Shown one piece after another: positions 10,925-63,997 of a DNA stretch of 64,000 bases (the stretch's first letter is position 1; each line of letters opens with the position of its first letter). The DNA is taken from NCBI GenBank assembly GCA_947650285.1, contig CANTFL010001445.1, positions 124,001 to 188,000 on the forward strand. The letters run 5' to 3'. The position numbers and the translations under genes were made by a program. Source of the stretch: Hyaloperonospora brassicae (Eukaryota > Oomycota > Peronosporomycetes > Peronosporales > Peronosporaceae). The notes beneath the pieces were generated by a model. It did not search any database. It had not been told where the DNA came from and saw only the letters and a list, made by a program, of their open reading frames with translations.

Positions 10925-11468
10925 TATGATAGCAGACCATCAATTAGTTTATGATATGCCATGACAGAAGTAGCCGTGGCCTCGACAGCGTGACCCCGTA
11001 CCGCGTCTTTGCTCCTAGCTTGATCAGCGTCCTAGCGTTGATCTGAGACCAATGAAGATACATCTAGAGACTCGTCGATAGTTATACAATCGAGTAGCGA
11101 GTGAAATGGAAATGAAGTGACCAGAATGCGATGAGATTGAAAACGTGTGGGAATTAGTGTATTGTACGGAATGGCAAGACAGTCATCTAGATTGTCAACT
11201 TACTTAATGCGTGCACCTCCTAATTACGTTTGTGCTGATAGATGATCTTTTTTTGGCTAAGTTAAACATTCTGTCGACCATCACATCGTCGTGTCCATTC
11301 CAAGCACTTACACTTGCATATAGTTACACTCATATTGACGGCTGGTGCATCTTCATCGCACCACTTGCAGTCTAACGCGCAGCGTCGGGTGACGCCAGTC
11401 TTGTTGGCATCTCCTTTTTCCTCATAGGCACCGGATCAGCGCCCAACCTTTTCATATATCTCGGTCAT
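10925..11468. other. Left flank of element B, decayed Cys-rich frame
   Basis: On the minus strand around 11430-11270 one frame has clustered cysteines (CALDCKWCDED, then CKCKC), resembling the start of a zinc-finger transposase, but stops interrupt it. Nothing else is recognised. This flank does not resemble the right flank of element B (the gag of element D). Confidence 0.3.
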
Positions 11469-11909
11469 TGTAACGGAGAACTGGTGACAACGTACCGGTT
11501 GACCAGTACGGATCTCAATTCCACTGACAACAGTGATAGTCAGTGACCTGCTAAGTGTTGCACCAACACAGAGAAGGAAAGGAGACTAAGTGAACACTCT
11601 AGTTTCCAATAAAAGTAAAACTGTTATTTAATACAATTAAGTCTTATCACTCTTGTGTCTCAGTTCGTCCTGACTAAATTATATTAATCTAACTTAACGT
11701 ATGATGACGTCTACTCACCACCCATTGCGCGCGTCTAGCAGCGATTGGTGCGTTGATATCATCAGGATATCAACCAATGAGTAGACCCTTCGGTCATCTC
11801 AACAATATCATCATGCTCTGTGATATTGTTGAAAGAACATTCAACGTAATATTCTTGGCTGTCATTTTCTCATTATTGACAATATCATGTAACGGGCTAC
11901 CCCGTTACA
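11469..11909 (-). repeat. 3' LTR of element B
   Basis: Runs from TGTAACGG to CCGTTACA, 441 bp. The last 330 bp match the partner LTR at about 95%, but the first ~115 bp match poorly. The plus-strand right tip, TGTAACGGG-CTAC-CCCGTTACA, is a perfect 9-bp hairpin. Confidence 0.9.
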
Positions 11910-11922
11910 TCACACTTCCCTT
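11910..11922 (-). promoter_or_regulatory. Polypurine tract of element B
   Basis: On the sense (minus) strand the sequence AAGGGAAGTGTGA ends exactly at the LTR. Elements A and E have the same kind of tract (AAGGGGG...TGA) in the same place, which fixes the sense strand and shows which LTR is 3'. Confidence 0.75.
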
Positions 11923-12044
11923 AGCTGATAGTCACCTTGTGACAATCGAAACTTGGTGACCACCCGTTGGATGCCAACGGGACGGGGAGCACTTGTTTGT
12001 CTGATCCATTTATTCTGACTTTTTCTCGCATAGTTACCGTTTCT

Positions 12045-15286: not shown

Positions 15287-15617
15287 TGTAATGGGCCACA
15301 TTACATAATAAACAGATAATTACATTTGTAGGTAGGTGCTGTGCCTGAATAGCGGGCACAGCTTGATTTTTTTTATTGGTTTATAATTGGGGATCTAATA
15401 GACCCAGTATGAGCCAATGATAATTTAGCCTAAAATGAGTGGTTCCCGAAAGTCGGAAACAAGATCGTGTTTGGTATGATTCAAATATCTTCGGAGCTAG
15501 TACGAATCAAAACAAAAATAAAATCAGAGTAAAATTACTTGATACCTAGTAATTAGATTATACGCTTCCTCAAAGCGCCTGTGCAAGCTAGCGACGGGAC
15601 GTTCTAGACCCGTTACA
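15287..15617 (+). repeat. 5' LTR of element A
   Basis: Starts TGTAATGGGCCACATTACA (itself an inverted repeat) and ends CCCGTTACA. Matches 22782-23111 almost completely. Confidence 0.93.
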
Positions 15618-15619
15618 CC

Positions 15620-15630
15620 TGGTAGCACTT
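15620..15630 (+). promoter_or_regulatory. Candidate primer-binding site of element A
   Basis: TGGTAGCACTT lies 2 nt after the LTR end and begins with the TGG complementary to a tRNA CCA end. Element B has the same 11 bases at the equivalent place (26502-26512 minus). I cannot name the tRNA. Confidence 0.65.
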
Positions 15631-15643
15631 AGTAGTCCTTCCC

Positions 15644-16692
15644 ATGCCCGAGTTTGGGATGAGCGATACTCCATATTATGACTCTCTAGATTTATTATTG
15701 GGGCATGCGAGCTTTCCCAACCTCACTGGTGTTGAGTGGGGTGCGCTTAATCGACTCGTGGCGATATCGGGGGAGGCGTTCGTCATGTCACCGTTGAGAT
15801 CAGCGACCCCTGATGGACAACGATTTGCCCTACACGATTTTATGGGCCGCAAGCTTGCAAAATCTATTCGGCGAGCCTTAACTCCCTCATGATCTTCACG
15901 GAACAACTTCGTAACGATGGAGACCTCCGTCAACTCAGGAGAAGGCAAGGATCGAATGTCGCTGAGCCGTTGGTTTCGGAAAGTCGACATCGCCATCTCT
16001 TAAGGGATTCTTGAGGCTTCCCAGGCTAAGGTCAACTTCCTCCTTCCCGTCCTACAGGAAATGCCAAAGAGTGGGCCCTTGGTAAGCTCGTCTTGGACGA
16101 GCACGCCTTTCATACCCTAAATGATTTTTAGAATGATCTTTGTCTTACGTTCGAGCCACCTTAAGAGGAGAAAATGGTGCGCTCGAGGTTCCTTTCTATG
16201 CGACAGGGCAAAATATCGATGCGTGACTACGTGCAGTTGGCTCGACATCTGGCGTCGTGTATCATCACGCATCTCATGGACATATATACTCAGGTGAATG
16301 TCTTCGTGGATGGTATGCGTGAGGGACAGACTCGCTTATCTCTTGAGCGCGCGGAGCCTGCCACATTGGAGGAGGCATTTAGCATTTCCCTCCGTGAGGA
16401 CTTCAGGGTCACAAAGGCTTACACCAAGCCCTCTGTCGTCACCGTCGTCAGTCCTCCTGGGCCAAAACCTATGGAGATTGACGTGATTGATTCGTCAAGT
16501 GACCGACGACGGGTGACTCCACATAAGGGAGACGCTCGTTCCGGGCGTCAAATGGTTTGCTTTCGTTGTAGAAAGCCAGGGCATCGCGCGGCTGAGTGCC
16601 GCGCGCCTGCGCCGATTTCGGCACATACAGTGAACGCCCAGCACGAGGAAGCTGCCCCAGCTGCAAGTCCAAAAAACTGCCGGGAACAGTAG
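15644..16692 (+). pseudogene. gag of element A
   Basis: The N-terminal part (15644-15892) contains LTGVEWGALNRL, matching LSDVEWSAIERM of gag B. After a break (about 15893-16170) the capsid part reads from 16174: MRQGKISMRDYVQLARHL is the usual gypsy gag segment. It ends with a complete CCHC zinc knuckle, CFRCRKPGHRAAEC, at 16558-16599, for RNA binding. The gap between the two parts has stops and frame changes. Confidence 0.85.
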
Positions 16693-16764
16693 GTGCAGGG
16701 CGCCCTACTGGTTTGAACGAAGGTCCGGGTACCCCAATGGCAGCCTGACCTTTCCAGACCACCT

Positions 16765-17140
16765 GTGCTACACGCACGCTTTAATGCCACCACTACGAGT
16801 GGATATTCACGTCTGATCATTGTCAGTTTGCACGTCGCCCTTGTTCGGAAACCTCTACGAGCCCTCCTAGACTCATGGGCTACTAATAATTTCTTTCGTT
16901 ACTCTTGTTTATCAATACTGAACCCAGCATTCCGGAACGCGAGTGACCTGGCCAAGTCGTCGTCAAATTGGCTGACGGAAAGCCACACCGCGTATTGCGG
17001 CGCAAAGTGTCGTTGCCGTATACGTTTGACTGTTTCAATAGTAATGATGATTTCTTGGTGATCGAGATAAATAATGCATTTGATTGCATAATGGGCATGC
17101 CATGGTTGGCACGTTGTAAGCCCCAGATCGACTAATTAGC
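16765..17140 (+). pseudogene. Protease of element A
   Basis: The aspartic protease active site appears as LRALLDSWATNNFF near 16857-16898, with Trp in place of the expected Gly of Asp-Ser-Gly. The second conserved block (AFDCIMGMPWLARCKP) follows near 17070-17125 in another frame. Both features mean the enzyme is inactive. Confidence 0.75.
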
Positions 17141-17147
17141 CATATCA

Positions 17148-18127
17148 GTGAGACGTCGACGCAAGTTCGATGTCAGTGAAGTGTTTACGCATCTTTTGAT
17201 GTCCCCAAGCGATTGGTCCAACGTCACAGTCTTGGATCGTAAAACCACGACGGAAGTGGTGCACAGAGTAAACGATGGTCCTCTCTGTACTGCTTATTCG
17301 GTTCTTCGAGACATCAGTAAAAGTGACTTCTCGCTTAGCAGCGAGGAGAATGACGCGGACGAGCAGAGGCTCCCGCACGAGGATGACGCGGTCTAACAGG
17401 GTTTCCCGCACGTGCATGCAGTGGTTGAACCGGGGTTTCCATCTGCACCCATTGTAATCGAGCAGGGGATCCTACAAGGGCAATTTGAGAGTGAGCACGA
17501 GCTCGATAACGAGTGTGACGTGGATGGACAGGAGTCATAACGTGAGAGCTTGATGGTCGAACCGGGGTTCCCATCATCACTCAATGTGGTCGATCCAAGG
17601 TTCCCACATGAACAATTTGTGGTTGAGCAGGGGCTCCCACGAGAGAGAAACGTGGATGGACAGTAGTCTTTACGTGATAGAATGATGGTCGAACCGGGGT
17701 TCCCATCATCACCCACTGTGGTCGAACCAAGATTCCCACATGGACACGTTGTGGTCGATCAGGGGCTCCTACACGAGCTAACAGAGGCCAGGTTGGAGCT
17801 CCCGCATCAAGTTTCGACGGTCGAGAATGAGTCACTCCCGTCATGTGATTACGGCAACAAGGATGAGGACATTCAGTGCCTAGAATGGGGGGATGGCTTA
17901 CCACCTGGATGCGGTTCGCCAGCTACGAGTATCGTCTTGGAGCACGATGGGGACGCAAGAATCGAGAATTTGGCGTTGGAATGAGTCCACGCTATCGTAT
18001 ACGTGGAAGGAAGTCCACAAAGGCGCCTTTACATCGAAGTCTCGAGTCCACCTCGTGACGCGTCTCAATTACAAGCCTTCCGGGACTCCCCTGGAAGCAT
18101 TTACTACGTAACTTTAAGGGAGGCACA
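17148..18127 (+). repeat. Pol linker of element A with VEPGFP-type repeats
   Basis: Between protease and RT. From about 17420 to 17790 the plus strand encodes repeated units of the form V(V/D)(E/D)(P/Q)(G/R)(F/L)P. The nucleotide motif GGTCGAACCGGGGTTCCCA is exact at two places (near 17553 and 17686). Two or three longer units of about 130 bp are visible, each with a conserved GTGGATGGACAG stretch. Stops interrupt the frame. Elements B and E have a linker at this position but without these repeats. Minus-strand frames over the repeats are shadows. Confidence 0.65.
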
Positions 18128-19740
18128 GTGAATTATGTGTGTTTGATCACCAACGAGGTGATAATCGAGACATACGAGGAGCATATGACACGTCCTCGTA
18201 GCGCTGAACCGAAGTCAGCGCGTGAAGAGATATTTGCATTGCAGACATGGGAGGCTCTGCGAGAGTCTGGTAACCCCGTCTACGACATTGCACGTGAGTA
18301 TGCAGACGTGCTTCCGGAAATGATTCCGGCTGAACTTCCTGCTGATCGTGGTGTTTGGCACGAAATTGACCTCGTGCCAGTTTCGAAGGATTGTGTAACA
18401 CGGCAGTGGCCGATGCCCCGGGATCAAGTCGAGGCTATTGATGCATTCTTCGAAGGCCGTCGTAAGGCATGTCATGTGCGTGAAAGCATTTCACCACATT
18501 CGAGTCCAAAAATCTGTGTGAAGAAGGCTACGGGAGGCTGGCGGATCGTGCATGCGTTTAATAAGTTAAATGATGCCACTATTCCTGCGCAAACGCCTAT
18601 CCCCAGGAAGGACATGGTGTTGAACTTTATGTCAGGTAGCGCTATCTTAAGTGCCATCGATCTAACTGATAGCTTTTATCATATCCTGATGCAATCGAAT
18701 GACATACCACTCACAGCGGTGAGCACTCCGAGCGGTATGCGGTATGCTATGGGAATGTTTGGTAATGCCACAAGGTTTGAAAAATGCTCCGACCACCTTC
18801 AATCGTATGGTATCCCAAGTGTTGAGACCACTACATGACTTCGCTCCTAGTTACTTCGATGACATCTTCATCCATATTCGCGCCGAGGAAAACCTCAGCG
18901 AAGTTCAAGTTCACCTTAATCACTTGTAACAGGTGTTCCAATTCATGCGAGACAACGACTTATACGCGAATCTCATAAAGGGTGTCTTTTGCGCACCGGA
19001 GATCCCGTTGCTGGGATGTTATAGGAATAAATCGGGAGTTCGAGCTGATTTAGAGAAGATATCGTCAATCTGTTCTTGGCCCACGCCCAAGAACCCTATG
19101 GAATTACGTCAGTGGCTCGGTTTGGCTAATTACTTGCACATGTATACAAAGGATTACGTTGGTTCTATACAGGCTTTGTCATCACTTTTAAAGAAAGTCG
19201 CACGTGGACGTGGCGTCCCGAGCTTTAAACGGCCTTCGATACGGTAAAAAAAGAGCCTGGCATCAGCCCCAAAGCTGATCCTTTCGGATGACTCCAAGCC
19301 ATTCCATGTGGTATGCGACGCCAGTGATTTCGCAAACGGATGCGCCCTTATGCAATCTGACGACGGGGGTCGTGAACGAGTCGTGAGTTATCAGCCACGA
19401 CAGCTAAAGCCGGCGGGAAAGAACTACTCAGTTCACGACAAGGAGTTGCTAGCAATGCGCTACGCGCTCAATAATTTCCGCGTCCATCTGCTTGGTGAAA
19501 GTATATTTGCGTTGTATACCGATCACGCATCGCTACGTACAGCGATGAAGAGCCCACATCCGTCTCAACGGATGGCACGGTAGCTTTCTTTCTTCTCCGA
19601 GTACGATATCGTCGTATACTACAAGCCAGGCAAGACCAATGTTCTTGCAGACGCCCTGTCACGACGTCCCGACTATGATCCTCGGAACGAGTTGAGCCGT
19701 CATTTAACTGACGATGACGAAGATGATGATTGATGTGCGA
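18128..19740 (+). pseudogene. Reverse transcriptase and RNase H of element A
   Basis: RT blocks occur in order: RQWPMPRDQVEAID, SPHSSPKICVKKATGGWRIV, AQTPIPRKDM, LSAIDLTDSFYHILM, then after a frameshift near 18745 the MPQGLKNAPTTFNR block and the intact catalytic YFDD at 18855-18866. RNase H follows from 18933, with VVCDASDF, VHDKELLA and YTDHASLR carrying the acidic residues. A stop at 19581-19583 replaces a usual Trp (QRMAR-stop-LSFF), and the tail YYKPGKTNVLADALSRRPDY is near 19620-19680. At least four lesions are visible. Confidence 0.9.
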
Positions 19741-21870
19741 CGTGTGCTTCGCTGAGTTTAACTCAAGTCGACTTCGAGCTGTGTTTATTCGATGAAATTG
19801 TCGCTCATATAAGAACGACCCCGAATATGCGGATATTATAGCCTACCTTCGTGCTCCCTGCGATGCTGCACCAAGAGCTCTAACACGAACTAAGCGTGAT
19901 CACATTAAGCAATATAGCATGAACGGGGACTTGCTTCTTTATAGAATCGATCAATTCAACGCTCCACGTACGGTGATCGCGAACGATTGACTTTGCGTGC
20001 TCGGATCATTCATAAGTATCACGACTCCCCGGCTGGTGGGCATCTAGGACGTGAAAAGACATTCGCAAATGTGTCTCGCGACTTTTTCTGGTCCCATATG
20101 TACAAGTGGGTGCGCAACTGGATTCGAACGTGCAAAATCTGCCAACGCGTGAAACCATCGTCATCGTCGCAGGCTCCCCTGCGTCCGTTTGCCAATTGCG
20201 ACTGAGGATTGGCGTTGGAGTTCGATGGACTTCATCTTCGGATTAGCACCCGACAGCCAAGGTCGAACGGGTTCCTGGTCTTTGTCGACAGATTCAGCAA
20301 GATGACACATCTTGTGCCTGTTCATGCCAAAATCGCCGCGGTAAAGACCGCGGTGCACTTTTCTGATGCTGTATTTCGTCATCATAAACTGCCGGAAAAT
20401 ATAGTTTCGGACCGTGATCCTCGATTCACATCCGCATTTTGGACACCACTGTTTGAGCTTCTGGAAACGAAGCTGCAGATGTCTAAAGCGGCCCATCCTG
20501 GAACTGATGGGCAAACAGAGCGTGTAAACCGAGTCCTTGAAGATGTTCTTCGAAGTTATGCTACGTAATTCACGAGTTGGAGGGCATTCTTACCACTTGT
20601 TGAGTTCGCACTCAAAAATGCTGTGCACGCGTCAACAGGATTGACGCCATTTTTTGTGAAATCGGCTCGACATCCTCGAGCTCCGACTCTTCTCGCCAAG
20701 GGTAACCTCACTGCATATCGTGGCGTTACTCTGGAGGGGGATGAAGGTGATAAACAACGATCGAGTGCAGCTCACGGTATTTTGTGCGCGAATTCAGTTA
20801 GACGTTTAAGGCGAAGTCGTCTGCTTTAACGCCACTTGGTGTGGCGTCTCCGTTAACTCGATGGACTGCACAGACATTGATTGAACTATCCTCGGGTAAG
20901 AGTTCACCCACCGCTAACTACGCGCCTGTTGAGTCGGAGCGACCAATTGACGACATGGCTGTGTAAAAATTTATACTTCTACGTTAATCCATCACCCGGT
21001 TCGTCCGTGACTCACTGCAGGCTGCAGTGGAAAAACAGAAGGAAAATGCAGACAAACACGGAAGGAAAAACATGACTAAATTCAAGAAAGGTGATCGTGT
21101 GTTATAATCGACGAAAGGATTAAGAGACTCTGCATTTACTAATCTTGTGGCGAGTAAACTCGCGCCTCGCCTCGTCGGCCCTTTCACGGTTCTGAAGTCG
21201 ATGGGTGACGCCTACACACTTGATATCCGCTCATCGCTGCGTCTTCACCCGACGTTTTACGTCGGGCTACTGAAGGAATATCGTCCAGCTACTCTTCACG
21301 GGTTAACTCCGCCCTCGAAATAGCAGGATCGTAGACCTACCTCCCTGCCCGTCTTACTTGACGCGCGAATGATATCGACGAGGATGAGTCCCCGTCTGCG
21401 CATGACCCAGAAAGTGGCGCTCCAGGTCCTCATCCGTTCGAGCAGTTCGCGATTCGACTGTCGAATCTCGCTTGTGGTCCTCTCCGCTTGGGCAGCACGA
21501 TCAAGAGCAGACTCAGCTGCCAGTCGAACGTCAGCAGTTCTATTCACAGCTTCGTCAACATCGTCCTGGGGTCCTAGGACGCCAGTTTTATCATCGCGAG
21601 GGACCATCTTCGTTTGTGAATGCGGAGGGCCAGGTGCGCTGGATCGTGGATCGTATCGTAAATCACGAATACCCTCCCCGTGCTGTGACGTCGTCGGCCC
21701 ATGACACGCGCGCATTTCATCCGCGCGTAAGTACCGTGTACGCTGGCTTGGGTACCCACCCGAGCAATATACGTGGGAGCCGAGTTCCACGCTTTGTCGC
21801 GAGGTTCGTGATGTCGTCCATAATCATGAGTCGACGGTGGTGAACTACTTGGATACAACTGATGTTGTGA
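19741..21870 (+). pseudogene. Integrase and chromodomain of element A
   Basis: The HHCC finger (YHDSPAGGHLGREKT ... CKICQRVKP) is at 20015-20158. The DDE core follows after a frameshift near 20210, with NGFLVFVDRFSKM, VSDRDPRF and TDGQTERVNRVLED. A GPY/F-like module (GPFTVLKSMGDAYTLDIR ... HPTFYVGLLKEY) is at 21177-21290. A chromodomain lies in two frames: VNAEGQVRWIVDRIVNHEY (21615-21675) and RWLGYPPEQYTWEP (21741-21785). Chromodomains bind modified histone tails and steer integration. A long antisense frame covers the chromodomain. Confidence 0.85.
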
Positions 21871-22555
21871 ATGTTCTCGTGAAAAACGAGAACGATGAGT
21901 CGCTCTATGACGTCGAGAACGAACACGATGGTGCGATTCATGGCGTCGCGAATGAACACGACGACAATAACGAGAACGAGTCCGAGAGCGAGAATGTCGC
22001 GGTGAATGTGTGTCATCAAGACCACGAAAACAAGATCGAACACGAGATAAGAGCCCCGCAACGAGACGGGCAGGTAAACGTGTCACCACCCTGCGCTGAG
22101 AATTCGGCGGAGTCAAACTCCGCTGTCGACAGTGGTCATCCCATTTTGGTGCACCACGAATAACTGCAACCTTCCGTTCGCTCAGAATGCGCTCGTACTT
22201 CCCGATCCGTTGTCGTTCTTGTTCACTGATTGGATTCTCAGTGATGTGTTGTTGCCACTCTTCGCGAAAAGGGCGCGGCAAAGGGTTTCAGGTACTGCAT
22301 CCTTCGTTGACGTGCACAAAGCAGATTCGATCGCCGTTCCAATCATTCTCAAATATTTTTTCGCGTAACGCGCCGATTGAACGTTCGGCGCGAAATTCTT
22401 CCCGATTGGTGAGCCATGACAAGAAATTGATTTCCTCTTCAAGCTGCCGGTTCCAACGTTGAATGAACGCACAACAGGAGATTTGCTAGGCATCGTATGA
22501 GGCTCTTTCAATCTTCCTTCCGCGCAATGCGCGGAAACGTCTGAAGTATACTTTC
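21574..22555 (-). pseudogene. Antisense ORF of element A
   Basis: On the strand opposite to pol, starting about 225 bp inside the 3' LTR. One frame reads from an ATG at about 22557, with stops only at two places (near 22486 and 22287), to 21574; the last 235 codons are open. The N-terminal half has WNRQLEEEINFLSWL, REEFRAERSIGALREKI and PLPRPFREEWQQH, which look like genuine protein sequence, and lies beyond the end of pol. The C-terminal half is Arg/Ser/His-rich and is antisense to the chromodomain. I see no similarity to the antisense ORF of B and E. Confidence 0.6.
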
Positions 22556-22768
22556 ATGGTGTCAAGTGATTCCGGAGCTCACGCTCCGGACAAGTCGTAC
22601 AACGCCCATAACTTGAGTTAAGGGTCCATCACGTGGACGATGGCGCTCCCGCTTATCGTGTGCAGGTGTGTTGCAGAGTTGGGAGTTATGTGTTCGCTCA
22701 TCGTTAAACGTCGCTGTGATGATTGAAGTCTCGACGGTTGTGCACTTACGGTTGGTGTGTGCTGTTTT

Positions 22769-22781
22769 GAGAAGGGGGTGA
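22769..22781 (+). promoter_or_regulatory. Polypurine tract of element A
   Basis: GAGAAGGGGGTGA ends exactly at the 3' LTR and matches the tracts of B and E. Confidence 0.8.
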
Positions 22782-23111
22782 TGTAATGGGCCACATTACA
22801 TAATAAACAGATAATTACATTTGTAGGTAGGTGCTGTGCCTGAATAGCGGGCACAGCTTGATTTTTTTATTGGTTTATAATTGGGGATCTAATAGACCCA
22901 ATATGAGCCAATGATAATTTAGCCTAATATGAGTGGTTTCCAAAAGTCGGAAACAAGATCGTGTTTAGTATGATTCAAATATCTTCGGAGTTAGTACGAA
23001 TCAAAACAAAAATAAAATCAGAGTAAAATTACTTGATACCTAGTAATTAGATTATACGCTTCCTCAAAGCGCCTGTGCAAGCTAGCGACGGGACGTTCTA
23101 GACCTGTTACA
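22782..23111 (+). repeat. 3' LTR of element A
   Basis: 330 bp, TGTAATGG...CCTGTTACA, about 98% identical to 15287-15617. The partner duplication GTTCT follows at 23112-23116. Confidence 0.93.
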
Positions 23112-23116
23112 GTTCT

Positions 23117-24655
23117 CGACGGATAAGTTATACTCCGCGAAGAAGGACAGCCACCTCGCAATCCTTTGCGAGAGATGTGGGCTGTTTAAGGCCGTGCGTT
23201 GTGACGCATGGTCCGTATAGACGATGAACGGTCTATCTCCCAAGATTTAGACCCGGAACTTAGCCATTGCATACTTCATGGCAAGTAGTTCCTTGTCATG
23301 CACTGGATGAATGCGTTCAGCTGGTTGCAGCTGACGCAATGTATAGCAGACGACGCGCTCTGCGCCGTCTGTGTCGTACTGCATCAACGCACAGCTGATA
23401 GCAAAATCGCTGGCGTCACAGACCACATGAAAAGGTCTGTCCCGATCTGCATTCGCCAAGATGGGCGATTGCATCAAGCTTTTCTTAATGCTTTCAAAGG
23501 AACGCTTACATTCAGCGTTCCATGACCACTTGACCTTTTTCTTGAGCAAGCAAGAAAGATGAACAGTCATCTCGGCGTAGTTGCGCGAGTACTTGTGCAA
23601 GTACGCCGCAAGACCAAGGAAATTCCTTAGTCCCTTTTCATCGGCTGGCACTGGCCAGTCGGTGATCGCCTTGATCGTTTCGGGATCAGGGCGTACGCCT
23701 TATTTGCCGACGATGAACCCAAGAAGTGGTATTTCGCTTGCCGCAAGCATACACTTCTTGAGGAGGCACACAACTTGTGCTTAAGCATGAGTTGAAGGAC
23801 CAGACGAATGTGAGTTTTGTGAATTTCCACGTCCGTCTTTCCGTTCATAGCCCGAGTATGGACAAACACATCGTAGAAGTAACTTGGTGCGAAGTCTCTC
23901 ACCGGTATCAACAGATTTGTAACACATCTGTTGAATGTTGCAGGGGCATTGCTCAGCCCCTGTGGCATCACTAGCCACTCCCAAAGCATACCGCTGGGGG
24001 TTCTCACTACTGTGTACGGAATGTCCCGTTCACGCATGAGGATCTGATAGAATCCGTCCATCAGATCCATGGACGAAAAGATGGTACTCTTTGACATACC
24101 ATCTATGATTACGTCCTTCCTCGGTATCGGCGTCTGAGCCGGTACCGTTGCAGCATTCAACTTGTTGAATGAGTGCACTATCCGCCACCCTCCTGTGGAC
24201 TTTCGCACACAGAAGGTCGGAGAGCTGTGAGGGGATGTAGATTCCCTCACATGGCCCACAGCAAAGTGATCGGCAAAGAACTTTTCTATCGCTATCACTT
24301 GTTCACGAGGCAGTGGCCACTGCTTCATGACACAATATTTCGAGCCCGGTTTGAGCTTGATCTCGTGTCGAGTGCCTTTGTCCTTAGGCAACTCGCAAGG
24401 CACGGATTCAGAGAACACATCCTTGAATTTGATCAAATCCTTATACAAAGGATTTGCCTGAAGTGACTCCCAGGATTGAGACGCGCATCGCTCAATCCGA
24501 GTCTTCTCATCGAGGACACTTTCGTCCATCGATGAACTGTTGAGAACCCGTTCATTCTCAGTAAACACCGTTGCCGATCGAATATCGGTAACGTACTCGT
24601 CCTCCGCGACGAGTACACAGATCTGCTTGACTTTGCCACTACGTAGATCACGCAA
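23117..24655 (-). pseudogene. Reverse transcriptase and RNase H of element B
   Basis: The RT frame is open from 24655 to 23627 with KQWPLPREQVIAIEKF, SPHSSPTFCVRKSTGGWRIV, AQTPIPRKD and MPQGLSNAPATFNR. The catalytic motif reads YFYD instead of YFDD, so polymerase activity is lost. RNase H continues in another frame from 23651 to 23247 (VVCDASDFAISCALMQ, VHDKELLAMKYA). The rest of RNase H lies left of element A. Confidence 0.9.
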
Positions 24656-24691
24656 AACCCGTTTCGGTTCTAGCGTCGACAGTTACATTAT

Positions 24692-25290
24692 CTATGAAGT
24701 TAACTTTGGAGGAGCAACTAGATCAAGCTTGTAAGCGCCTACGCTTGATCCATCATTAACCAAGACATTCAGTGTCTCGATTACCTCATGGGAAATCACT
24801 TCAACATTATCAGGGTGAGATTTCTCCACAATGTAGTGATCACTCACATTTTGTTCTTGTACAGTCGTGCTAACGACCGTGCCACGAGTGAGGCCATTGC
24901 AATCGCTCGTAGTACACCCACGTAAATGTGGGTGTTCCAAGACATTTTTAGGTTGTCATCTGAGGAACAAGTAGCAGGTTAAAAACTGGTCGATGCTGCC
25001 ACTCACTCTTGGCTCGTATCTTCTGAGCCAAGGTAGTCCTAAGATATCATCAAACTTGTCATCCAGGTCAAGTACGATGAAATCATCATCGTACTGTTCG
25101 CCTATTAACGTGTAGTGGATTCCGACTACACGTCTTTTCACAGTGATCGATACGCCTGTCGCAAGGCGCACCGTTATTATAGTTTGAGGGATCTCAAGCT
25201 TTACAAAGTTGATACTTTCAGGCTCTAGTGAATGGCGACGATCAAATTGTTCAATGCCCCACAGTCAACTAGGGCGCGAAGTGACAATTC
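24692..25290 (-). pseudogene. Protease and linker of element B
   Basis: The active-site block reads LVDCGALNNLI near 25280-25245 (Cys for the Ser of Asp-Ser-Gly). Stops follow, then VLDLDDKFDDILGLPWLRRYEP (25090-25020), the typical C-terminal half of a gypsy protease. The linker (24940-24692) corresponds to the linker of element E, including LNVLVNDGS. Confidence 0.8.
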
Positions 25291-25479
25291 CTTTGTCACT
25301 TAAAATGTCAAGGTGATTAGGGAAACCTCATCATCTGGTGCAGAGACACGCAGAGACTGTGTGTCTGGATTAGCCTTCGTCAAGAGATTTGATAATTCTC
25401 TTAGTGTTGCCTAATCAGTAGGGAGCTCCGCTCCTACTGAACCCGATCATTTTTGATAATCCACTTCGTTGTTGCGGTT

Positions 25480-26473
25480 TTGCAACAGCATCGAACCCTC
25501 TTCCTCCAAGTCTTCCAACTGGTAGACGTTACAGCGATCAGCTAAGCGGGGGATACTGCATTCGTATGCATAGTATCCCAGCTTATGACAGCTATGGCAT
25601 CTGACCGTTCGCTTGTCGCTCATAGGGCGAAGTTATTTGCCCTCGACATGACAGATATTAGTTGGATCTGGACCTTCGACCACTGGTCTTCTCTGTGGAC
25701 GATAGGGGGTCAGCGTGGTATGAGCCTATCTCATTCTAAAGTCTTCCTGCATCGCAGCGTAGATTGCTCCAGATTGCGTTTAAAATTTTCCTCGGAACAG
25801 GTGTTCTTGGTGGTATCAATCGAAAGTCCTTATATGAATACTGTAATCAACACAAATTAACTCACATGATCCAGACCCATTCGTCTTTCAAGGTATAGAA
25901 CATGCTGAGCGTAAGCACGAATCTTACGCTTTACCTGCTTGATCTCGAGAACTTCAGATAAAGTCCTGAACTTTGCCCTAGGTGGCTCAAAAGTCTCACT
26001 AAATGGGTTCTCGAAAACGTCTAACGACTTGAAAGCGTTCGGGTCGTGTTACGTAATCGACGGGCCTCGAAGATCCTGTCGATTTCGACGAATCATCTGA
26101 ACAGGAATCTTTTATTACTCCCCGGAAGTTGGAGATGTCTAATTTAAGAGACTCCTGTCGACACTCAAGCGTCGACAATGCGGACTGAAACTGATGTTGT
26201 CCCATTTTTTTTGTTCGCTGGTGATCTTGTTGTTGCAACAAGGTCACCCGCGCTCGCAAATCATGAAATTTCTCGTTTAAAGAGCTTGCTGATGACGACA
26301 TGCTGCTGGTATCTATCCCTTGATAATAGCATGGTCCAGATAGCTCCCTCACCAACGATCGAACTCATACGTTCGATCGCACTCCATTCGACATCGCTCA
26401 AATGGGAGTAGCTTTCACAAGTGCCGTGAAATCTGTCGTCTTCGACTTCCTTTAACATGTTTATGTTGGGCAA
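25480..26473 (-). pseudogene. gag of element B
   Basis: Starts just inside the 5' LTR with an N-terminal part (26473-26261, SHLSDVEWSAIERM). A coiled-coil-like segment follows (26355-25999, in another frame, with a Gln/His-rich LQQQDHQRTKKMGQHQ), then a capsid-type segment with LEIKQVKRKIRAYAQHV (about 25965-25900). A zinc knuckle near 25605-25560 reads CHSCHKLGYYAYEC, with Tyr replacing the His of CCHC. Several frame changes occur. Confidence 0.75.
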
Positions 26474-26501
26474 TGCGAGTGTGGTCCTTAGACGGACTTC
26501 A

Positions 26502-26512
26502 AAGTGCTACCA
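26502..26512 (-). promoter_or_regulatory. Candidate primer-binding site of element B
   Basis: On the sense strand TGGTAGCACTT lies 2 nt after the 5' LTR, identical to the site of element A. Confidence 0.65.
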
Positions 26513-26514
26513 GG

Positions 26515-26958
26515 TGAAACGGGACACCGACGACTACGTACTGGACTATAAGTACGGAGTTTACCTTTCACTGACGACAGTCAAGGTCAGTGCTTAGCTA
26601 GGTGTAAACACTTACACAGAGGAAGGAAAGGAGACTAAGTGAACACTCTAGTTTCCAATAAAAGTAAAACTGTTATTTAAAACAATTAAGTCTTATCACT
26701 CTTGTGTCTCAGTTCGTCCTGACTTGGTTATATTAATCTAATTTAACGTATGATGACGTCTACTCACAACCCATTGCGCGCGTCTAGCAGCGATTGGTGC
26801 GCTGATATCATCACGATATCAACCAATGAGTAGACCCTTCGGTCATCTCAACAATATCATCATGCTCTGTGATATTGTTGAAAGAATGTTCAACGTAATA
26901 TTCTTTAATGTCATTTTCTCATTAATGGCAATGTCATGTAACGGGATGCTCCGTTACA
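26515..26958 (-). repeat. 5' LTR of element B
   Basis: 444 bp from TGAAACGG (mutated TGTAACGG) to CCGTTACA. The inner ~115 bp match the solo LTR at 2504-2946, not the partner LTR at 11469. Confidence 0.9.
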
Positions 26959-28240
26959 CAACGGAGGTCCTTTCTAACTGCACTTCCGACACGTCAATCT
27001 TTTTTAAACCAACGATCTTCATGCCTCGTGAATCCGTAGTGGGTGCATGGCTTTGATCGTCCCCCATGATATCGATCCATGCGATCCGAATCTTGTGATC
27101 GTTTAGCAAAATTCCGATCACGTTGGCAACCATATTATTAACTTCCGCGCGGCGAGTGCCCAAGTTCTTGTTCATCTCCAGGACTGAAAGTAGCTTGTAG
27201 TTTCTTATGTTTTTCCCGAATCTTAGTACGATCCTGTGATCCCTCCGCACACACTCGTCGTCGGTCCACATCCACATCCGATCCACTTGACTCAGCATCC
27301 GATCCAATGATTTCGCTTTCTTCCTCTCGAATCGATCGCACCGCCTCGGTCGGTTTCAATGGTGTTGGATTTGAAATGAAACCAGATCGAGATCGAAATT
27401 TGCTCGATCCCATAAGGGATTTATTGGATCTAACTTCTATGCTCTGGTAGGCGCGCAGGATATCTTCCATCTCAACAGCATCTATCATTCGTAACAAAGT
27501 CAACTGTTTGGCCAAGTCACGATTGTCCAGCGTTTTAATGAAATGCCACATGCTCGCGTCTGATAGCTGGCGTAACGCCTCTGGTCGAGATCTACGCTCG
27601 GATTGCCGCCACATTCAGCCGATATCGATACACCAGCGGAGTTTCATCCGATCGTTTCGTTGCATTGTAGTATTGTCGACTTGTTAATGCTCTATGCCTT
27701 CCATATTGGATCACAAAATTATCCAAAAGGGTCTTTCGTTCATGGCGAGTCGATCGGATTTTATGGCGGTACCAGCTTCGGGCCGTTCCCGTGAGCAAAT
27801 CATTAAACACTAGGCACTTCTCTGCATCCGGAGCATGCTCACGTAAATATGTAGATTCGACTTTTTTTATCAAGCTCCTAGCTTCGTCTCTGGCTCGACC
27901 ATTAAATTTTTTTAGGTCGCTATCTGCCGATAGTCGTATCCTCTGCGTCGTCATTCCGCCACTTAGTGTTGTCTAGGCAGCAGCCATCAGTGTCCGTCTA
28001 AGATCCTTCTCATCAAGATGACGAGGATCGTAGTAGTAACATCGACTAAGATCCAATTCTTTCACCGACTCCATCGCCACATTTAGTAAATTTGCTTCGG
28101 TGTTCGTGGCATATACCGTCAATCTAAAAGGGTTCATATAATCCATCTTCCTCTGGCTTTCTTCGTATTTCTTCATATCTGCTTCATTGTACAACTGTAG
28201 CTGTCCAGCTGAAAAATTGTCGCTTAATTCGATCTCGCCT
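26959..28240 (-). pseudogene. gag of element D
   Basis: The retrotransposon gag (capsid) domain is clear at 27954-27592: DLKKFNGRARDEARSLIKKV, APDAEKCLVFNDLLTGTARS and PLVYRYRLNVAAIRA. It continues in another frame (27614-27138) with LRQLSDASMWHFIKTLDNRD and an acidic SDVDVD segment. A third frame (27307-26954) runs up to the LTR of B. Upstream, YNEADMKKYEESQRKMDYMN lies at 28194-28135. There are at least two frame changes. Confidence 0.8.
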
Positions 28241-58093: not shown

Positions 58094-58483
58094 TGTAACG
58101 GGGCACACCCTTGCGTAACTTAACGCAAGGGTTTTGGGTGCCCCGACGGACGTACACGTGGCAAGCGAGGAAGCGTAGGTAGGGTAAAAGTAGAACTGTT
58201 ATATTAATAAATTAAGTCTTTAAACTACTGTCTCTTCGTTTGACTTAATTCAATTATACTAATATAACTGCATGTATGGTGACGTCTCGTCACCACTCAT
58301 TGCGCGCGTCTTGCGGCGATTGGTGGGTTGATATCATCACGATATCAACCAATGAACAGACCCTTTGGTCGACCCTTCAATATCACCACTTTGGTGATAT
58401 TGTTTAAAGAATATCCATCTTTATATTCTTTATTGTCACTTTCCTTAAAGTGACAATTTCATGTAACGGGCTGCCCCGTTACA
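58094..58483 (-). repeat. 3' LTR of element E
   Basis: 390 bp, TGTAACGG...CCGTTACA. It contains strong hairpins: CCCTTGCGT near 58107 with its complement, GGTTGATATC near 58326, CAATATCACCA near 58378 (11 bp), AAAGAATAT near 58406 and TGTCACTTT near 58434. The tip TGTAACGGG-CTGC-CCCGTTACA (58462-58483) is a 9-bp hairpin. Confidence 0.92.
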
Positions 58484-58496
58484 TCACCCCCCCTTA
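58484..58496 (-). promoter_or_regulatory. Polypurine tract of element E
   Basis: On the sense strand AAGGGGGGGTGA ends at the LTR. This shows that genomic RNA is read on the minus strand and that the plus-strand ORF next to it is antisense. Confidence 0.8.
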
Positions 58497-58613
58497 ACTG
58501 ATAGTCACCGTGTGACTATCGAAATATGGAGGCCACCCGTTGGCCACCATTGGGACAAGGAGCACTTGTTTGGTCCGTTCCATTCACTTTCCGCTTGACC
58601 TCGCATAGTTAAC

Positions 58614-60197
58614 ATGTCTGTGCGAGGTGACTCAAGACCCACACAGCCCGGTGCTGTGCAAGCCTCTGCGGCAGACGATTCGTCGTCTGCCGCCCCTTCT
58701 TCGCCTGCAGCAACAGGTGCTGCAGGTGCACGCGGTATCACGCCGCGTGCGCACGATGACCCTGATGTAGAGGTCATCTACTCTGGCGAGTCAGACGTGT
58801 CTGACTCGGGCAATGCTCCAGAGGCGTCTCGCTCACCGGTGACGCCTCAGTATTCGCCAAGACCACTGCCGAATGAACGGACTCGTCATTTGCATCACAG
58901 TCTGTTCGGCAGTGATGACGATGATCAGGGTGGTGAGGAGTATATCTCCTTACCACCGCCGGCTCGTGCGTCTTCGCACGAGCGTGATGACGATGGCGCG
59001 AGCCGTCGTCAATCTGGGAGCCGTGGTACCGACAAGGGTACCACTGTGAAGCGTGATGAGTTGGAGCCGTGGCGTTTGCCCGAACGGCTCATCAATAGCC
59101 TCTCTCACGAGACAGGCCAACACCATCGAATACTTTTATTCGATGCAACCGAGCTTCACGGCTTGAGTTCCAGCGCGAAGAACTTTCGCGCTAAAGAAGA
59201 TTTTTATCTCGATGTCTTTCTTAGACATCGATGGTACAACAGCAACCAAAAGCGTGACAAGGCCTCGCTTTTGGCTGCGTGGAACGCGTTCGTCCAAAAC
59301 GTAAAGAATTTTGGACGAGAAGGGTGGCTCAAGAAACTTGAGGCGACACGCCTCAGGTTCGAAAGGAGAACGCCAACCGGTGCTAGGTACCGGTTGCACT
59401 GTTTATCGAGTGAGGCAGGCATTCCTTGCCTCACATGGGGAAACCCTTGTGCGAGTTGTGCTGACAACTCGCAGCGTGCACATAGGGATGTGTATTCCCT
59501 AGATTCGCCCTGGGGAAGGGCACACATCTCGGCTGAGATTCGTGACGCGATTGCAAACTTGCAATCCGTCTACAAGCGCCTAGGGCACGTGTTTACCGAT
59601 GGGCCACAGGACTCATCGGATGGGTCTCGTCATACTGGCGGACGAGACCTTCAACATCCATCAACAGCTGAGAGCGGGGCTCCCAGCTGTTCCAAGAGGG
59701 TGGATACCCCATCCACTGGACGAGGTAGCTCGTCCTTGATCCTGAATCGTCACGGTGATTCAAGATACGCTCCACTAGAAAGCGTTGATCACCGTGAGCA
59801 TCCACCAAAGAATGTGGTGGAGGAGGAAAGACCTCCTCCAGATGATTCGGTTCACCATCTCGACCCTTACGAGATGGATCGCGCAATCGATGAATTGCGC
59901 GATGACTTGAAGCACGAGCGCGACCGGCGCTACGCTTTGACCGATACCGTGCGGAAGAACCGCAAGGATCACGAGGCTGATCGGGAGAGGGATCGCGCCG
60001 ATTATGCGACAGCGCAGCTTCAGGTCGAGCGGGATGTCCGCTCCCTATTCGGCGAGCTGGCGACAGCTCGCGGGGAGATCTCTCGGTTAAGTTCCGAGGT
60101 ATCATATCTGCGCGACCAGACGGATCGTCTGGAGCGCAAACGCAAGAGCTTGATGGATGTTCTTAAATGTGGGAGCTATTTTTATCGGAAGAAGTAG
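58614..60197 (+). CDS. Antisense ORF of gypsy element E, 527 residues, unknown function
   Basis: An intact frame starting 130 bp inside the 3' LTR and running against pol; its last 600 bp overlap the chromodomain end of pol in antisense. Residues 1-150 are Ser/Ala/Asp-rich and disordered. Residues about 165-320 look globular: [57 protein letters not shown], and a [11 protein letters not shown] cluster. Residues 325-420 are low in complexity. Residues 425-520 form a probable coiled coil (heptad-like [17 protein letters not shown] ... [13 protein letters not shown]). It is not gag: gag of the related element B lies at the 5' end on the sense strand. Extra ORFs in antisense near the 3' LTR are known in some plant Tat elements; homology to those is not claimed. 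Expression would need a promoter in or near the 3' LTR reading inward. Confidence 0.75.
59593..60162 (-). pseudogene. Chromodomain end of element E pol
   Basis: In frame with the upstream integrase part but separated by a TAA (complement at 60163-60165). The chromodomain is at about 59790-59596: [40 protein letters not shown] and a C-terminal [11 protein letters not shown]. It binds histone tails in chromoviruses and directs integration. A Pro-rich stretch ([12 protein letters not shown]) precedes it. The whole segment is covered in antisense by the 527-residue ORF. If the TAA is real, the chromodomain is made only by readthrough or not at all. Confidence 0.8.
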
Positions 60198-61319
60198 GCT
60201 CGTACCGACAGTACGACCTGAGTCGCCCCACGTAAAACGTAGGATGCGTGCGCATCCTACGTGGCAATTCGAGTGTGTTTGCATTGCCCTTGCGATGCAA
60301 CACTCGAAACGGCCCAATGTACTTCGGTAGTAGTAAACTACTGCCGACACTAGTGACTGCATGTCCAGGTAAGTTTACCGTAGACAGTAGTACTAGGTCG
60401 TTAACCTTAAATGAAAGAACATTTGCTCTTCCATTCTTGTCTGCGTTCCGTTTCTGACGGTCCACCGCATTTGCGATGGAGTCCTGAACGAAACGGACTA
60501 CCGCTTCTCGAGTCAGCAGGAAGTTCTCCGCTGACTCTTTGTTTTGTCTGGCAGTGCGCTTCGTGCGCACTGCTAAGAGATTGCTCTCTTCTTCAGCGAG
60601 GTTGTCTTCTTCCTCGCTGACATAATCGTTGGCGATGCTGAATATACCAGCATCGTCATCATCATCCGAATCAATAATAGCGTCTTCGCTATTATTGAGA
60701 TGATCTTCTTCATCGATGTCGACTTGATCGACATCGGCATCATACGTGACGACGTTAACGTCGACACGTGATGAGCAAGAGCCAAAACGGTTTTTGCTCG
60801 AGCGAGTCCCTCCCCCCTTATCCAAAAGTCACACTCTATAAGGGCGGGCACTCGTGGATGGCGCAGGCTATTCACGTAAAACGGTGTGTGCTGTGTGGAA
60901 GCATGCACCGAATTATTGATGGCGAATTCCACCATGGGTAGGAATTCGCTCCAACTCGGAAACGAGTGGACATATCCTCGAAGAATCTCTTCGAGGACAC
61001 GGTTCGCACATTCCGTCTGACCATCTGTTTCTGGTAGGTCAGAAGTGGACATCTTCAATCGTGTTCCGAGAGTACGGAACACGGTTTGCCAAAATGCCGC
61101 CGTGAACCGAGGGTCACGGTCGGATACGAGTTCACGGGGTAACCCGTGGAGTCTAAAGACCGTGTCTAGAAAGACACGAGCACAACCCTGAGCCTTGATC
61201 GACTCAGGGACAGCAGCAAGATGGACCATCTTGCTGAATCGGTCAACAAATACAAGAATACCATTATTCTTGTGAGCGTCTTCGGGAAACCCGAAGACGA
61301 AGTCCATTGAAACGGACTG
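60163..61319 (-). pseudogene. Integrase of element E
   Basis: Core (61307-60840): MDFVFGFPEDAHKNNGILVF, FVDRFSKMVHL, VSDRDPRFTAAFWQ and TDGQTECANRVLEEIL give the Asp, Asp and Glu of the DDE site. A frameshift near 60810-60830 leads into 60825-60163. There an acidic insert (about 60755-60600, many Asp/Glu) precedes the GPY/F module, IGPFRVLHRKGNANTLELPR (about 60315-60256), and HPTFYVGRLRSY. Element B has a matching but less acidic insert. Confidence 0.88.
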
Positions 61320-62537
61320 CTAGCACTCTGTCGGAACAGGCAGAGGCTGCAATGGCGCACGGGATGAAGGACTAGGCTTCACCCGTTGACAAACTTCGCA
61401 AGCACGTATGTACTTGCGAACAAACTGATACTGGCGGGGCCAGTAAAAGTCACGACTTACCGTGAGGTAAGTCTTTTCCCTTCCACGATGGCCGCTTGTT
61501 GGGGCATCGTGACACTCATACATGATGCGCAAACGCAAATCATGATGAGCGGGTACGACGACACGAGGTGTGTCGTCGGCAACAGCTGTATAGTACAGCA
61601 ATCCGTTGCGTGTACTATACCGATCCGATGAGGATCGGTACAAAGCCGGTAAATCCCTCATGGATTTACTGGATGGATTTACCAGATGATCCATCAATCG
61701 CAGAAGATCCTTATCTTCCGCGTATGCCTTTCGTACGTCGTCAAGTAAACTTGACGACGGGACACTGACTGACAGTGTCGCAACAGTGGGCTTATCCTCA
61801 CTGTTGAATTGTGCGTCCGGCTCGAAATCGGGCCGGCGCGAAAGCGCATCCGCGACGACATTTAGTCGTCCCGGTTTATACTCCACGGAGAAGTTATACT
61901 CCGCGAAGAAATACAGCCACCTGGCCATTATTTGCAAGAGGTGTGGGATGTTTACGGCCGTGCGTAGTGACGCATGGTCGGTATACACGATAAACGGTAT
62001 ATCTCCCAAGAGATAGACCCGGAACTTAGCCAGTGCATATTTCATGGCAAGGAGTTCCTTGTCATGCACTGGGTAATTACGCTCAGCTGCTTGCAGCTGA
62101 CGCGACTGATAACAGATGACGCGCTCCGCGCCATCTGCATCGAACTGCATTAGCGCAAAGCCGATTGCGAAATCGCTGGCGTCACAGACCACATGAAATG
62201 GTCTGTCCTGATCTGCAATCGCCAAGATCGGTGATTGCATCAAGCTTTGCTTAATGCTTTCAAAGGAACGCTGGCACTCAGCGCTCCATGACCACTTGAC
62301 ATCTTTCTTGAGCAGACAAGAAACATGAACAGTCATCTCGGCGTAGTTGCGCGAGTACTTGTGCAAGTACACCGCAAGACCAAGCAAATTCCTTAGTCCC
62401 TTGACATCGACTGGCACTGGCCAGTCGGTGATCACCTTGATCGTTTCGGGATCAGGGGGTACGCCTTGTTTACCCACGATGCACCCAAGAAGGGGTATTT
62501 CGCAAGCCGCAAGCACACACTTCTTGAGGAGGCACAC
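61320..62537 (-). pseudogene. RNase H and integrase finger of element E
   Basis: Open for 405 codons. RNase H (HVVCDASDFAIGFALMQ, PVHDKELLAMKYALAKF, VYTDHASLRTAV, ADALSRRPDF) keeps its acidic residues. The integrase HHCC finger is YECHDAPTSGHRGREKT ... ACEVCQRVKPSP. The frame ends at TEC-stop, where sense sequence is expected to continue into the core, so the TAG at 61320-61322 is a lesion. Confidence 0.9.
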
Positions 62538-62581
62538 AACTTATACTTGCGCATAAGTTGAAGAACCTGACGAACGTGAGT

Positions 62582-63997
62582 TCAGTGGACTTCAACGTCC
62601 GTCTTTCCGTCCATAGCCCGGCTATGGACGAACACATCGTCGAAGTAACTCGGTGCGAAGTCTCGCACCGGTCTCAACAGATTTGTGACACATCTGTTGA
62701 ATGTTGCAGGGGCATTACTCAGCCCCTGTGGCATCACTAGCCACTCCCACAGCATCCCGCTGGGGGTACTCACTGCCGTGAACGGGACGTCCCGTTCACG
62801 CATCAGGATCTGATAGAATCCATCCATCAGATCCATGGACGAAAAGATGGTACTCTTTGACATACCATCTATGATTACGTCCTTCCTCGGTATCGGCGTC
62901 TGAGCCGGTACCGTTGCAGCATTCAACTTGTTGAATGAGTGCACTATCCGCCACCCTCCTGTGGACTTTCGCACACAGAAGGTCGGAGAGCTGTGAGGGG
63001 ATGTTGATTCCCTCACATGGCCCGCTGCTAAGCGATCGGCAAAGAACTTGTCGATCGCTAGTACTTGTTCACGAGGCAGTGGCCACTGCTTCATGACACA
63101 GTACTTCGAGCCCGGTTTGAGCTCGATCTCGTGTCGGGTGCCTTTGTCCTTAGGCAACTCGCAAGGTACGGATTTAGGGAACACATCCCTGAATTTGATC
63201 AAATCCTTATACAAAGGATTTGCCTGAAGTGACTCGCAGGATTGAGACGTGTATCGCTCAATCCGAGTCTTCTCATCGAGGACACTTTCGTCCATCGATG
63301 AGCTGCTGAGAACCCGTTCGTTCTCAGCAAATACTGTAGCCGACCGAATATCGGTCACATACTCATCCTCCGTGACGAGTATGCAGATCTGCTTGACTTT
63401 TCCACTACGCAGATCACGCAAGAACCGTTTCGGTTCTAGCGTTGACAACTGAGCTATCTCCGAAGTCAACTTCGGACGCACAATAAGATCAACTGTATAA
63501 GCGCCTACCCTTGATCCGTCATTGACCAAGACGTTCAACGTCTCGGTTTCTTCCTGGGAACTTGCTTCCACAGGTTGCTGAGGGCCTAATCCCTCAGCAA
63601 GCGACTCTTGAGGAATTCCTTCCTCAAGTACGTGGGGACTTATTCCCTCGACGTCTTCCGACTGTGGCTGTGCAACCACAGTCAGGAACCGATCCTCTAC
63701 GGTCGACTCTCCAGTCGACCTAGGATTTTCATGTTGCCCCTTGGGGGCAACAGGTTTCTTTCTTCTAAGATGCTGCCCGCTAGGCATGCATCCATGTCCC
63801 GGCCCACTCGACTTATTCGAGTGGTGGACCTTCGGCGCAGCCTGTACATCTGTACAGCCGCCGGGAGCTTGCTCCACAGTGTAGTGATCAACTACACTGT
63901 GATCTTGTGCAGTCGTGCGAACGACCGTACCGCAAGTGAGGCCATCGCACTCACTCGCAGAACATCCACACGCTTGTGGACGCTCCAAGATGTTCAT
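62582..63997 (-). pseudogene. Linker and reverse transcriptase of element E (5' end beyond window)
   Basis: Open for 471 codons up to the window edge. The N-terminal third is a low-complexity linker (SEDVEGISPHVLEEGIPQES) after the protease, which lies outside. RT blocks: KQWPLPREQVLAIDKF, SPHSSPTFCVRKSTGGWRIV, AQTPIPRKD, SSMDLMDGFYQILM, MPQGLSNAPATFNR and the intact catalytic SYFDDVFVH (about 62651-62625). A frameshift just after (62580-62540) separates it from RNase H. The start shown is only the first Met in the window. Confidence 0.9.

What the first reader, a model, noticed from the sequence alone, without database searches (positions are those of the whole stretch)
58094..63901. Gypsy element E is saturated with perfect short hairpins
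Seen: over 40 perfect inverted repeats (stem 8-12 bp, loop 1-13 nt) tile the element, roughly one per 100-130 bp with many shorter ones between, in the LTR, the antisense ORF and pol alike. For random sequence of equal base composition, stems of at least 8 with loops 2-13 should occur about 12/65536 per position, or about once in 5.4 kb. In stretches of element C that I scanned (46961-47500) I saw nothing similar, and the hAT at 4975-8252 gave no such impression. Inference: either the genomic RNA is under selection for local structure (packaging, RNA stability, evasion or use of small-RNA pathways), or the element's replication repeatedly converts imperfect palindromes into perfect ones by template switching. 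I know of no description of this in oomycete retroelements.
Basis: partly seen in the sequence, partly recalled or inferred. Interest (0 to 1): 0.9.

Follow-up and report, generated by a model that had tools for sequence, protein, structure and literature searches.

The report
Retrotransposon tiled with conserved short hairpins
A mobile element in a water-mould (oomycete) genome is packed with perfect short hairpins far beyond chance, and evolution keeps their stems paired on both strands, which points to an unrecognised whole-element architecture rather than an accident.

Summary
Window 58094-63901 holds 75 perfect inverted repeats (stem 8 or more, loop 1-13); dinucleotide shuffles average 0.9 and a Copia control has none. 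The element is a 7,983-bp Ty3/gypsy LTR retrotransposon with pol on the minus strand and a conserved antisense ORF; at least 41 near-identical LTRs exist in the genome.

The stems are maintained. Variants shared between copies are depleted in stems, most in stem interiors, while single-copy variants are flat along the stem. Fourfold sites diverge about half as much in stems. Double changes tend to restore pairing.

The surprise is strand symmetry. G-U and A-C mismatches are equally common and equally purged, and both strands fold equally well. Selection on genomic RNA alone predicts otherwise. Template switching finds little support. Distant relatives carry fewer hairpins, mostly at other sites, so bulk matters more than position.

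Best guess: both complementary strands are kept self-folded, perhaps against RNA silencing. The purpose is inferred, not shown.

The parts
58107..63901 (.). 75 perfect hairpins (stem 8-12, loop 1-13), LTR, antisense ORF and pol alike
58094..58485 (-). 3' LTR of E (392 bp); the other LTR is at C853:189685-190076, outside the window
58614..60197 (+). antisense ORF, 527 aa, coding by codon-position signal; no Pfam family over its cut-off (weak coiled-coil-like matches)
59593..60105 (-). chromodomain ORF (PF00385)
60163..60825 (-). ORF with Tf2-1-like SH3 domain (PF24626)
60573..61307 (-). integrase core ORF (PF00665)
61320..62537 (-). RNase H and integrase zinc-binding ORF (PF17917, PF17919, PF17921)
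62582..63997 (-). reverse transcriptase ORF (PF00078)
11467..15286 (-). first part of older related element F, with decayed remnants of the same hairpins
23112..26961 (-). second part of element F
15287..23111 (+). element G of a more distant family, nested in F (terminal repeats 97.6% identical); 13 hairpins, 1.7 per kb

Best explanation
E is a young Ty3/gypsy LTR retrotransposon with a chromodomain whose sequence, coding and non-coding, has evolved into a series of local hairpins, 74 of 75 of them 18-29 nt long, with Watson-Crick stems of 8-12 bp and loops most often of 4-5 nt. Shown from sequence: the density, maintenance of the stems in the replicating lineage, near-equal behaviour of the two strands, and little shared position with distant relatives. 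Inferred: because pairing is kept on both strands and only the bulk property persists, each complementary strand (sense genomic RNA and antisense transcript, or small RNAs made from either) is kept folded on itself, so that long sense-antisense duplexes, guides and target sites are less available to the host's RNA silencing. The conserved antisense ORF gives a reason for antisense RNA to exist. The perfect stems are short (12 bp or less), so they are not themselves long duplexes.
For: Density against shuffles. Shared variants per site: stem 30 of 2159, between 174 of 5148, loop 29 of 676. Shared breaks: 14 over 849 interior pairs against 15 over 234 terminal pairs (p=.0003), with singletons flat at .155 to .179 per pair. 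Fourfold sites, E against F: stem 19 of 113, between 96 of 319, p=.006. E against E2: stem 47 of 1168, between 218 of 2634, p=8e-7. 17 of 23 pairs changed on both arms between E and F restore pairing (p=.004 if .44 is expected, my estimate). Strand symmetry. Hairpins of E and G2 share one site, of E and H none. Antisense ORF under coding constraint. Small RNAs of P. infestans map mostly to transposable elements, predominantly LTR retrotransposons (PMC3522703, abstract).
Against: No RNA, small-RNA or antisense-transcript data were on hand, so the purpose is untested. Only 25-27% of 25-mers of E fold at -6 kcal/mol or better, against 11% in a shuffle and 5% in a control stretch, so most small RNAs would not be blocked. 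Hairpins are as dense in gag and pol, outside the antisense ORF. Sense loops are purine-rich (217 of 373, strand-flip p=.005), a hint of asymmetry. Overall singletons are also lower in stems (.084) than between (.104) or in loops (.129). No compensatory pair is shared by copies.
Confidence: 0.4

Rival explanations
1. DNA-level or replication-level structure: hairpins matter in the genomic RNA and its minus-strand cDNA during reverse transcription, or as cruciforms in double-stranded DNA, for compaction, protection or control of recombination.
For: Watson-Crick only, strand-symmetric. Purine-rich sense loops mean pyrimidine-rich minus-strand loops, which suits DNA hairpins (recalled). Hairpins run through gag, pol and LTR alike.
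Against: No direct evidence for any DNA-folding step; nothing here separates it from two-strand RNA folding.
Confidence: 0.25
2. Sense-only RNA structure: bulk folding of the genomic RNA for stability, packaging by Gag or compaction, as in RNA viruses with genome-scale ordered structure.
For: Large folding excess, bulk property with site turnover, purine-rich sense loops with tetraloop third base purine in 17 of 18, Gag present with a weak CCHC match.
Against: G-U is no better tolerated than A-C (10/12 shared, 13/13 fixed); antisense z equals sense z. No loop bias in G2 or H (23 of 45 and 13 of 29 purines).
Confidence: 0.12
3. Mutational origin: polymerase or reverse-transcriptase template switching turns imperfect palindromes into perfect ones and keeps correcting them, without selection for structure.
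For: Predicts perfect, strand-symmetric stems. Arm homogenisation in short inverted repeats is documented in yeast genes (PMC8604942, abstract and passages). Several compensatory changes alter amino acids on both sides. One hairpin (piece A 3654-3677) has a spacer that reads as an inversion between E and F (seen by eye, 2-nt change).
Against: Spacer inversions: 2 hits from one event in 137 comparisons, 1.1 expected. The six hairpins present in one row only arose by one or two substitutions. Among 1083 pairs 31 shared broken states and no shared compensatory one, though unbiased correction should fix many changes as pairs. Fourfold divergence lower in stems.
Confidence: 0.12

Closest known systems
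Genome-scale ordered RNA structure (GORS) of some RNA viruses (recalled; only search listings seen)
   Same: Folding excess along the whole genome, bulk property rather than fixed sites
   Different: Here perfect Watson-Crick hairpins with equal effect on both strands and no G-U preference, in an LTR retrotransposon
Yeast Ty3 genomic RNA (PMC11381356, abstract and one section read)
   Same: Ty3/gypsy element with structured regions in its RNA
   Different: The paper describes a mosaic, with stable highly structured regions up to 30% of Ty1 and Ty3 RNA; E shows excess folding in all sampled parts of the window stretch
Template-switch homogenisation of short inverted repeats in yeast genes (PMC8604942, abstract and passages)
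   Same: Perfect short inverted repeats in coding DNA
   Different: No excess of spacer inversion or multi-base arm copying found; hairpins shared across subfamilies
Oomycete Ty3/gypsy families in Peronospora, Bremia and Phytophthora (protein matches)
   Same: Pol proteins 51-84% identical in the listed rows

Membership tests
Ty3/gypsy LTR retrotransposon with chromodomain | two LTRs in the same orientation | tested here: met
   392-bp matches at C853:182094-182485 and 189685-190076, both +
Ty3/gypsy LTR retrotransposon with chromodomain | pol order RT, RNase H, integrase, chromodomain | tested here: met
   Pfam matches in that order on the minus strand
Ty3/gypsy LTR retrotransposon with chromodomain | gag | tested here: met
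   Retrotrans_gag and Ty3_capsid over cut-off in another copy, L038; CCHC below cut-off
Genome-scale ordered RNA structure | folding energy well below shuffled along the genome | tested here: met
   mean z -4.98 in 77 windows of 150 nt; controls -0.04 and -0.30
Genome-scale ordered RNA structure | structure selected in the sense RNA, G-U tolerated (my reading of what sense-RNA selection implies) | tested here: not met
   GU and AC equal, sense and antisense z equal
Template-switch product | spacer inversions or multi-base arm copying in excess | tested here: not met
   2 hits from one event, 1.1 expected; rare hairpins from one or two substitutions; low power
RNA-silencing evasion architecture (hypothesis) | fewer small RNAs or weaker silencing where hairpins are dense | not testable with these tools
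   no small-RNA data
Known structured RNA family | Rfam match | tested here: not met
   0 matches at gathering score in 58000-64000

The most novel reading that the evidence does not exclude
A clade of oomycete retrotransposons has turned its whole sequence into self-complementary units of about 18-29 nt, the size range of host small RNAs, so that a small RNA of either polarity spanning a unit folds on itself and both its guide and its target are blocked: a strand-symmetric counter to RNA silencing written into protein-coding DNA.
Probability: 0.2. Interest if true: 0.95.

Novelty: new variant of a known kind. Interest (0 to 1): 0.85.

Why it matters
Whole-genome local folding is discussed for RNA viruses (recalled). 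Here it appears in a DNA-resident retrotransposon, strongly and on both strands, with many copies and relatives that record how it evolves. The symmetry test separates RNA-only from two-strand or DNA-level hypotheses and can be run on any oomycete gypsy family. If the silencing reading holds, it would be a new way for a mobile element to resist RNAi while keeping its proteins.

Tried and rejected
Chance and composition: rejected by dinucleotide and synonymous-codon shuffles. One repeated palindrome: the hairpin sequences listed differ from one another. Known RNA family: no Rfam match at gathering score in 58000-64000. tRNA gene in copy L038: none. Template switching. A lower mutation rate as the cause of stem conservation: singletons are flat along the stem, though overall they are somewhat lower in stems. 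Conserved hairpin sites between E and G2: pairing kept in 105 of 213 pairs against 0.26 for slid partners, about what 61% identity alone would give by my estimate, so not counted as evidence. Codon phase: 11 of 58 stems have third positions facing third positions where a third is expected (one-sided p=.012; chi-square p=.067), a weak sign of silent-site tuning. Tetraloop third-base purine (17 of 18) is one of several columns looked at. One search used stem classes shifted by one base through an offset error and is not used; one search repeats it. DNA of relatives in viral contigs and genome contigs: none found.
Full report
WHAT IS THERE. The window is G000:C853:124001-188000 of a 100.6-Mb assembly in 898 contigs. 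Element E starts at 58094 and runs past the window end to C853:190076: 7,983 bp with two 392-bp LTRs in the same orientation. Pol is on the minus strand: RT, RNase H, H2C2 zinc, integrase core, SH3, chromodomain. Gag (Retrotrans_gag, Ty3_capsid; CCHC below cut-off) was read from another copy. A 527-aa ORF on the plus strand (58614-60197) lies opposite the 3' end. The LTR search lists 43 matches, 41 of them full or nearly full length at 99-100% identity, with 40 of 2754 first-look candidates scored, so LTR and copy numbers are lower bounds. A PF17917 search scored 150 of 3630 candidates and listed 150 matches, most at one score; whether each is an E copy was not checked. The nearest proteins with names are from Peronospora effusa (81% over 99% of the query), Bremia lactucae (82% over 58%) and Phytophthora (1815 hits, 120 listed), which supports an oomycete; the species was not identified.

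THE OBSERVATION. 75 perfect inverted repeats (stem >=8, loop 1-13) lie in 58094-63901; 100 dinucleotide shuffles give 0.89 on average, maximum 4. By stem length, observed against the mean of 30 shuffles: >=6 123 against 15.8, >=7 94 against 4.3, >=9 44 against 0.2, >=10 23 against 0, >=11 10 against 0.03. After subtracting chance the commonest stem is 8 bp. Loops peak at 4-5 nt and are rare beyond 13. Total length has median 23 nt, 74 of 75 between 18 and 29 nt. Over the element, hairpins of stem >=8 and loop up to 20 cover 32% of bases. In the 20 stretches, one-kilobase bins wholly inside copies hold 7-19; flanking bins mostly hold 0-2, with two exceptions: L031 after the end of E (12 and 14) and the last bin of L040 (6), where other hairpin-rich stretches seem to lie. 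Background: 7 in 25.0 kb of flanks, 20 in about 42.7 kb of the window outside E and 11467-26961, and 0 in a 1.8-kb Copia stretch with mean z 0.07. Synonymous-codon permutation leaves 0.2-0.8 hairpins per ORF against 20, 11, 10 and 22.

MAINTENANCE. 117 hairpins (86 in piece A, 31 in piece B; 1083 pairs) were followed in up to 18 rows of A and 17 of B. L039 and L040 are two parts of one copy, and L036 gives two rows in B; rows are not all independent. Six hairpins present in one row only were left out of the pair counts and looked at. Shared variants per site: stem .0139, loop .0429, between .0338; singletons .0838.1287.1035; shared against singleton, stem against the rest, p=.0012. Within stems, shared broken states are 14 over 849 interior pairs, 7 over 117 outermost and 8 over 117 loop-closing pairs, while singletons are .155.179 and .162 per pair, which serves as an internal control for mutation rate. 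Two compensatory pairs occur, each in one row. Subfamily E2 (94.5%, 96.3% and 90.6% identical in three aligned pieces) differs from this E copy at 17 of 527 and 30 of 641 stem bases, 81 of 1300 and 137 of 1334 between, 4 of 171 and 31 of 203 in loops; pooled, stem against between p=8e-7, loop against between p=.49. Pairs broken in E2 were 6 and 20, compensatory 0 and 1, and 1 and 4 were already polymorphic in E. Between E and F (80.7% identity over 5,174 positions; 73 hairpins fully mapped) pairs are the same in 504, compensatory in 17, changed on one arm in 147 (39 GU, 50 AC, 58 other), changed on both and broken in 6, and broken in this E copy in 22. F is an old copy, so much of its breakage is decay. 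The compensation tests (p=.004 and .0015) rest on expectations that I estimated from the transition share and stem divergence. Fourfold sites in RT, RNase H and integrase: stem 19 of 113 differ, between 96 of 319, loop 9 of 26 (stem against between p=.006); for shared variants 3 of 133 against 23 of 345 (p=.07) and for singletons 15 of 133 against 60 of 345 (p=.12). Of the 17 compensatory pairs 10 lie in sense ORFs, and most of these alter an amino acid on one or both sides.

STRAND SYMMETRY. If only the sense RNA mattered, G-U should be tolerated and A-C not. Fixed single mismatches in near-perfect stems (at least 80% of rows) are GU 13, AC 13, other 14 with >=7 flanking pairs; 13, 10, 10 with >=8; 9, 9, 7 with >=9. 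Shared polymorphic breaks are GU 10, AC 12, other 7, gaps 2; singleton breaks GU 40, AC 62, other 70, gaps 3. At the between-region rate about 24 of each transition class would be expected among shared breaks; that yardstick is partly coding. Mean MFE z in 77 windows of 150 nt: sense -4.98, antisense -4.92, paired p=.93; controls -0.04 and -0.30; F -3.6. Against full symmetry, sense loops of 3-8 nt carry 217 purines of 373 bases (71 loops, strand-flip p=.005; by region .36 to .79, lowest where chromodomain and antisense ORF overlap); in G2 and H the counts are 23 of 45 and 13 of 29, no bias.

DISTRIBUTION. E2 has 24 hairpins in 2.0 kb (z -4.9) and 22 in another 2.2 kb. Two more distant families, about 52-57% identical to E in RT and RNase H, have 13 in 3.0 kb (G2; shuffle 0.6, z -1.5) and 7 in 2.5 kb (H; shuffle 0.34, z -0.7). 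G in the window, a decayed relative of G2, has 13 in 7.8 kb, 7 of them in 21000-22781. G2 and H share four hairpins (stem >=7) in register; G2 and E share one, H and E none. So an excess is seen in all four families of the clade that were sampled, is most extreme in the E group, and the sites turn over.

THE ANTISENSE ORF. In the part free of the chromodomain ORF, shared variants fall 10/11/28, E2 differences 31/20/44 and F differences 63/69/115 on antisense codon positions 1/2/3. In the overlap the pattern is less clear (7/8/13, 15/7/11, 22/35/26). It is therefore very likely a coding sequence, and an antisense transcript is likely. This is the main, and indirect, reason for preferring two RNA strands over DNA.

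MECHANISM. Shown: density far above chance, stems maintained, near strand symmetry, bulk rather than position. Inferred: both complementary strands must fold. I put silencing evasion first because it involves both strands, cares about bulk, and fits units of small-RNA size; P. infestans makes 21-, 25/26- and 32-nt small RNAs, mostly from transposable elements and predominantly LTR retrotransposons (PMC3522703, abstract only). Against it, only a quarter of the 25-mers of E fold at -6 kcal/mol or better (25% and 27% on the two strands; 11% in one shuffle; 5% in a control stretch). Folding of RNA template plus minus-strand cDNA is close behind and would fit the loop purine bias better.

LITERATURE. 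Ten searches listed no description of hairpin saturation in an LTR retrotransposon; I saw listings and abstract starts. Read further: PMC11381356 (abstract and one section), PMC8604942 (abstract and passages), PMC3522703 (abstract). The library lacks most subscription papers and preprints. Statements on GORS viruses and DNA loop preferences are recalled.

Noticed in passing
58614-60197 (+): The antisense ORF shows codon-position constraint against copies, E2 and F and has a related reading in F (47.7% over 411 aa); function unknown, C-terminal part with weak coiled-coil-like Pfam matches.
   Followed up: partly
L031 (C853:190077-192000), just right of E: The stretch after the end of E is also hairpin-rich (12 and 14 per kb), and an RNase H match lies on the opposite strand at C853:194217, perhaps a second element facing E.
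   Followed up: no
E copies, all aligned positions: Among single-copy variants sense G>A (170) exceeds C>T (122), p=.016; could be cDNA deamination or chance.
   Followed up: no
9454-9499: A lone perfect inverted repeat with a 17-bp stem and 12-nt loop outside the hairpin-rich elements (coordinates corrected by one).
   Followed up: no
11467-26961: Element F (terminal repeats about 89% identical) carries a nested element G with terminal repeats 97.6% identical; a further F-type LTR lies alone at about 2501-2948.
   Followed up: partly
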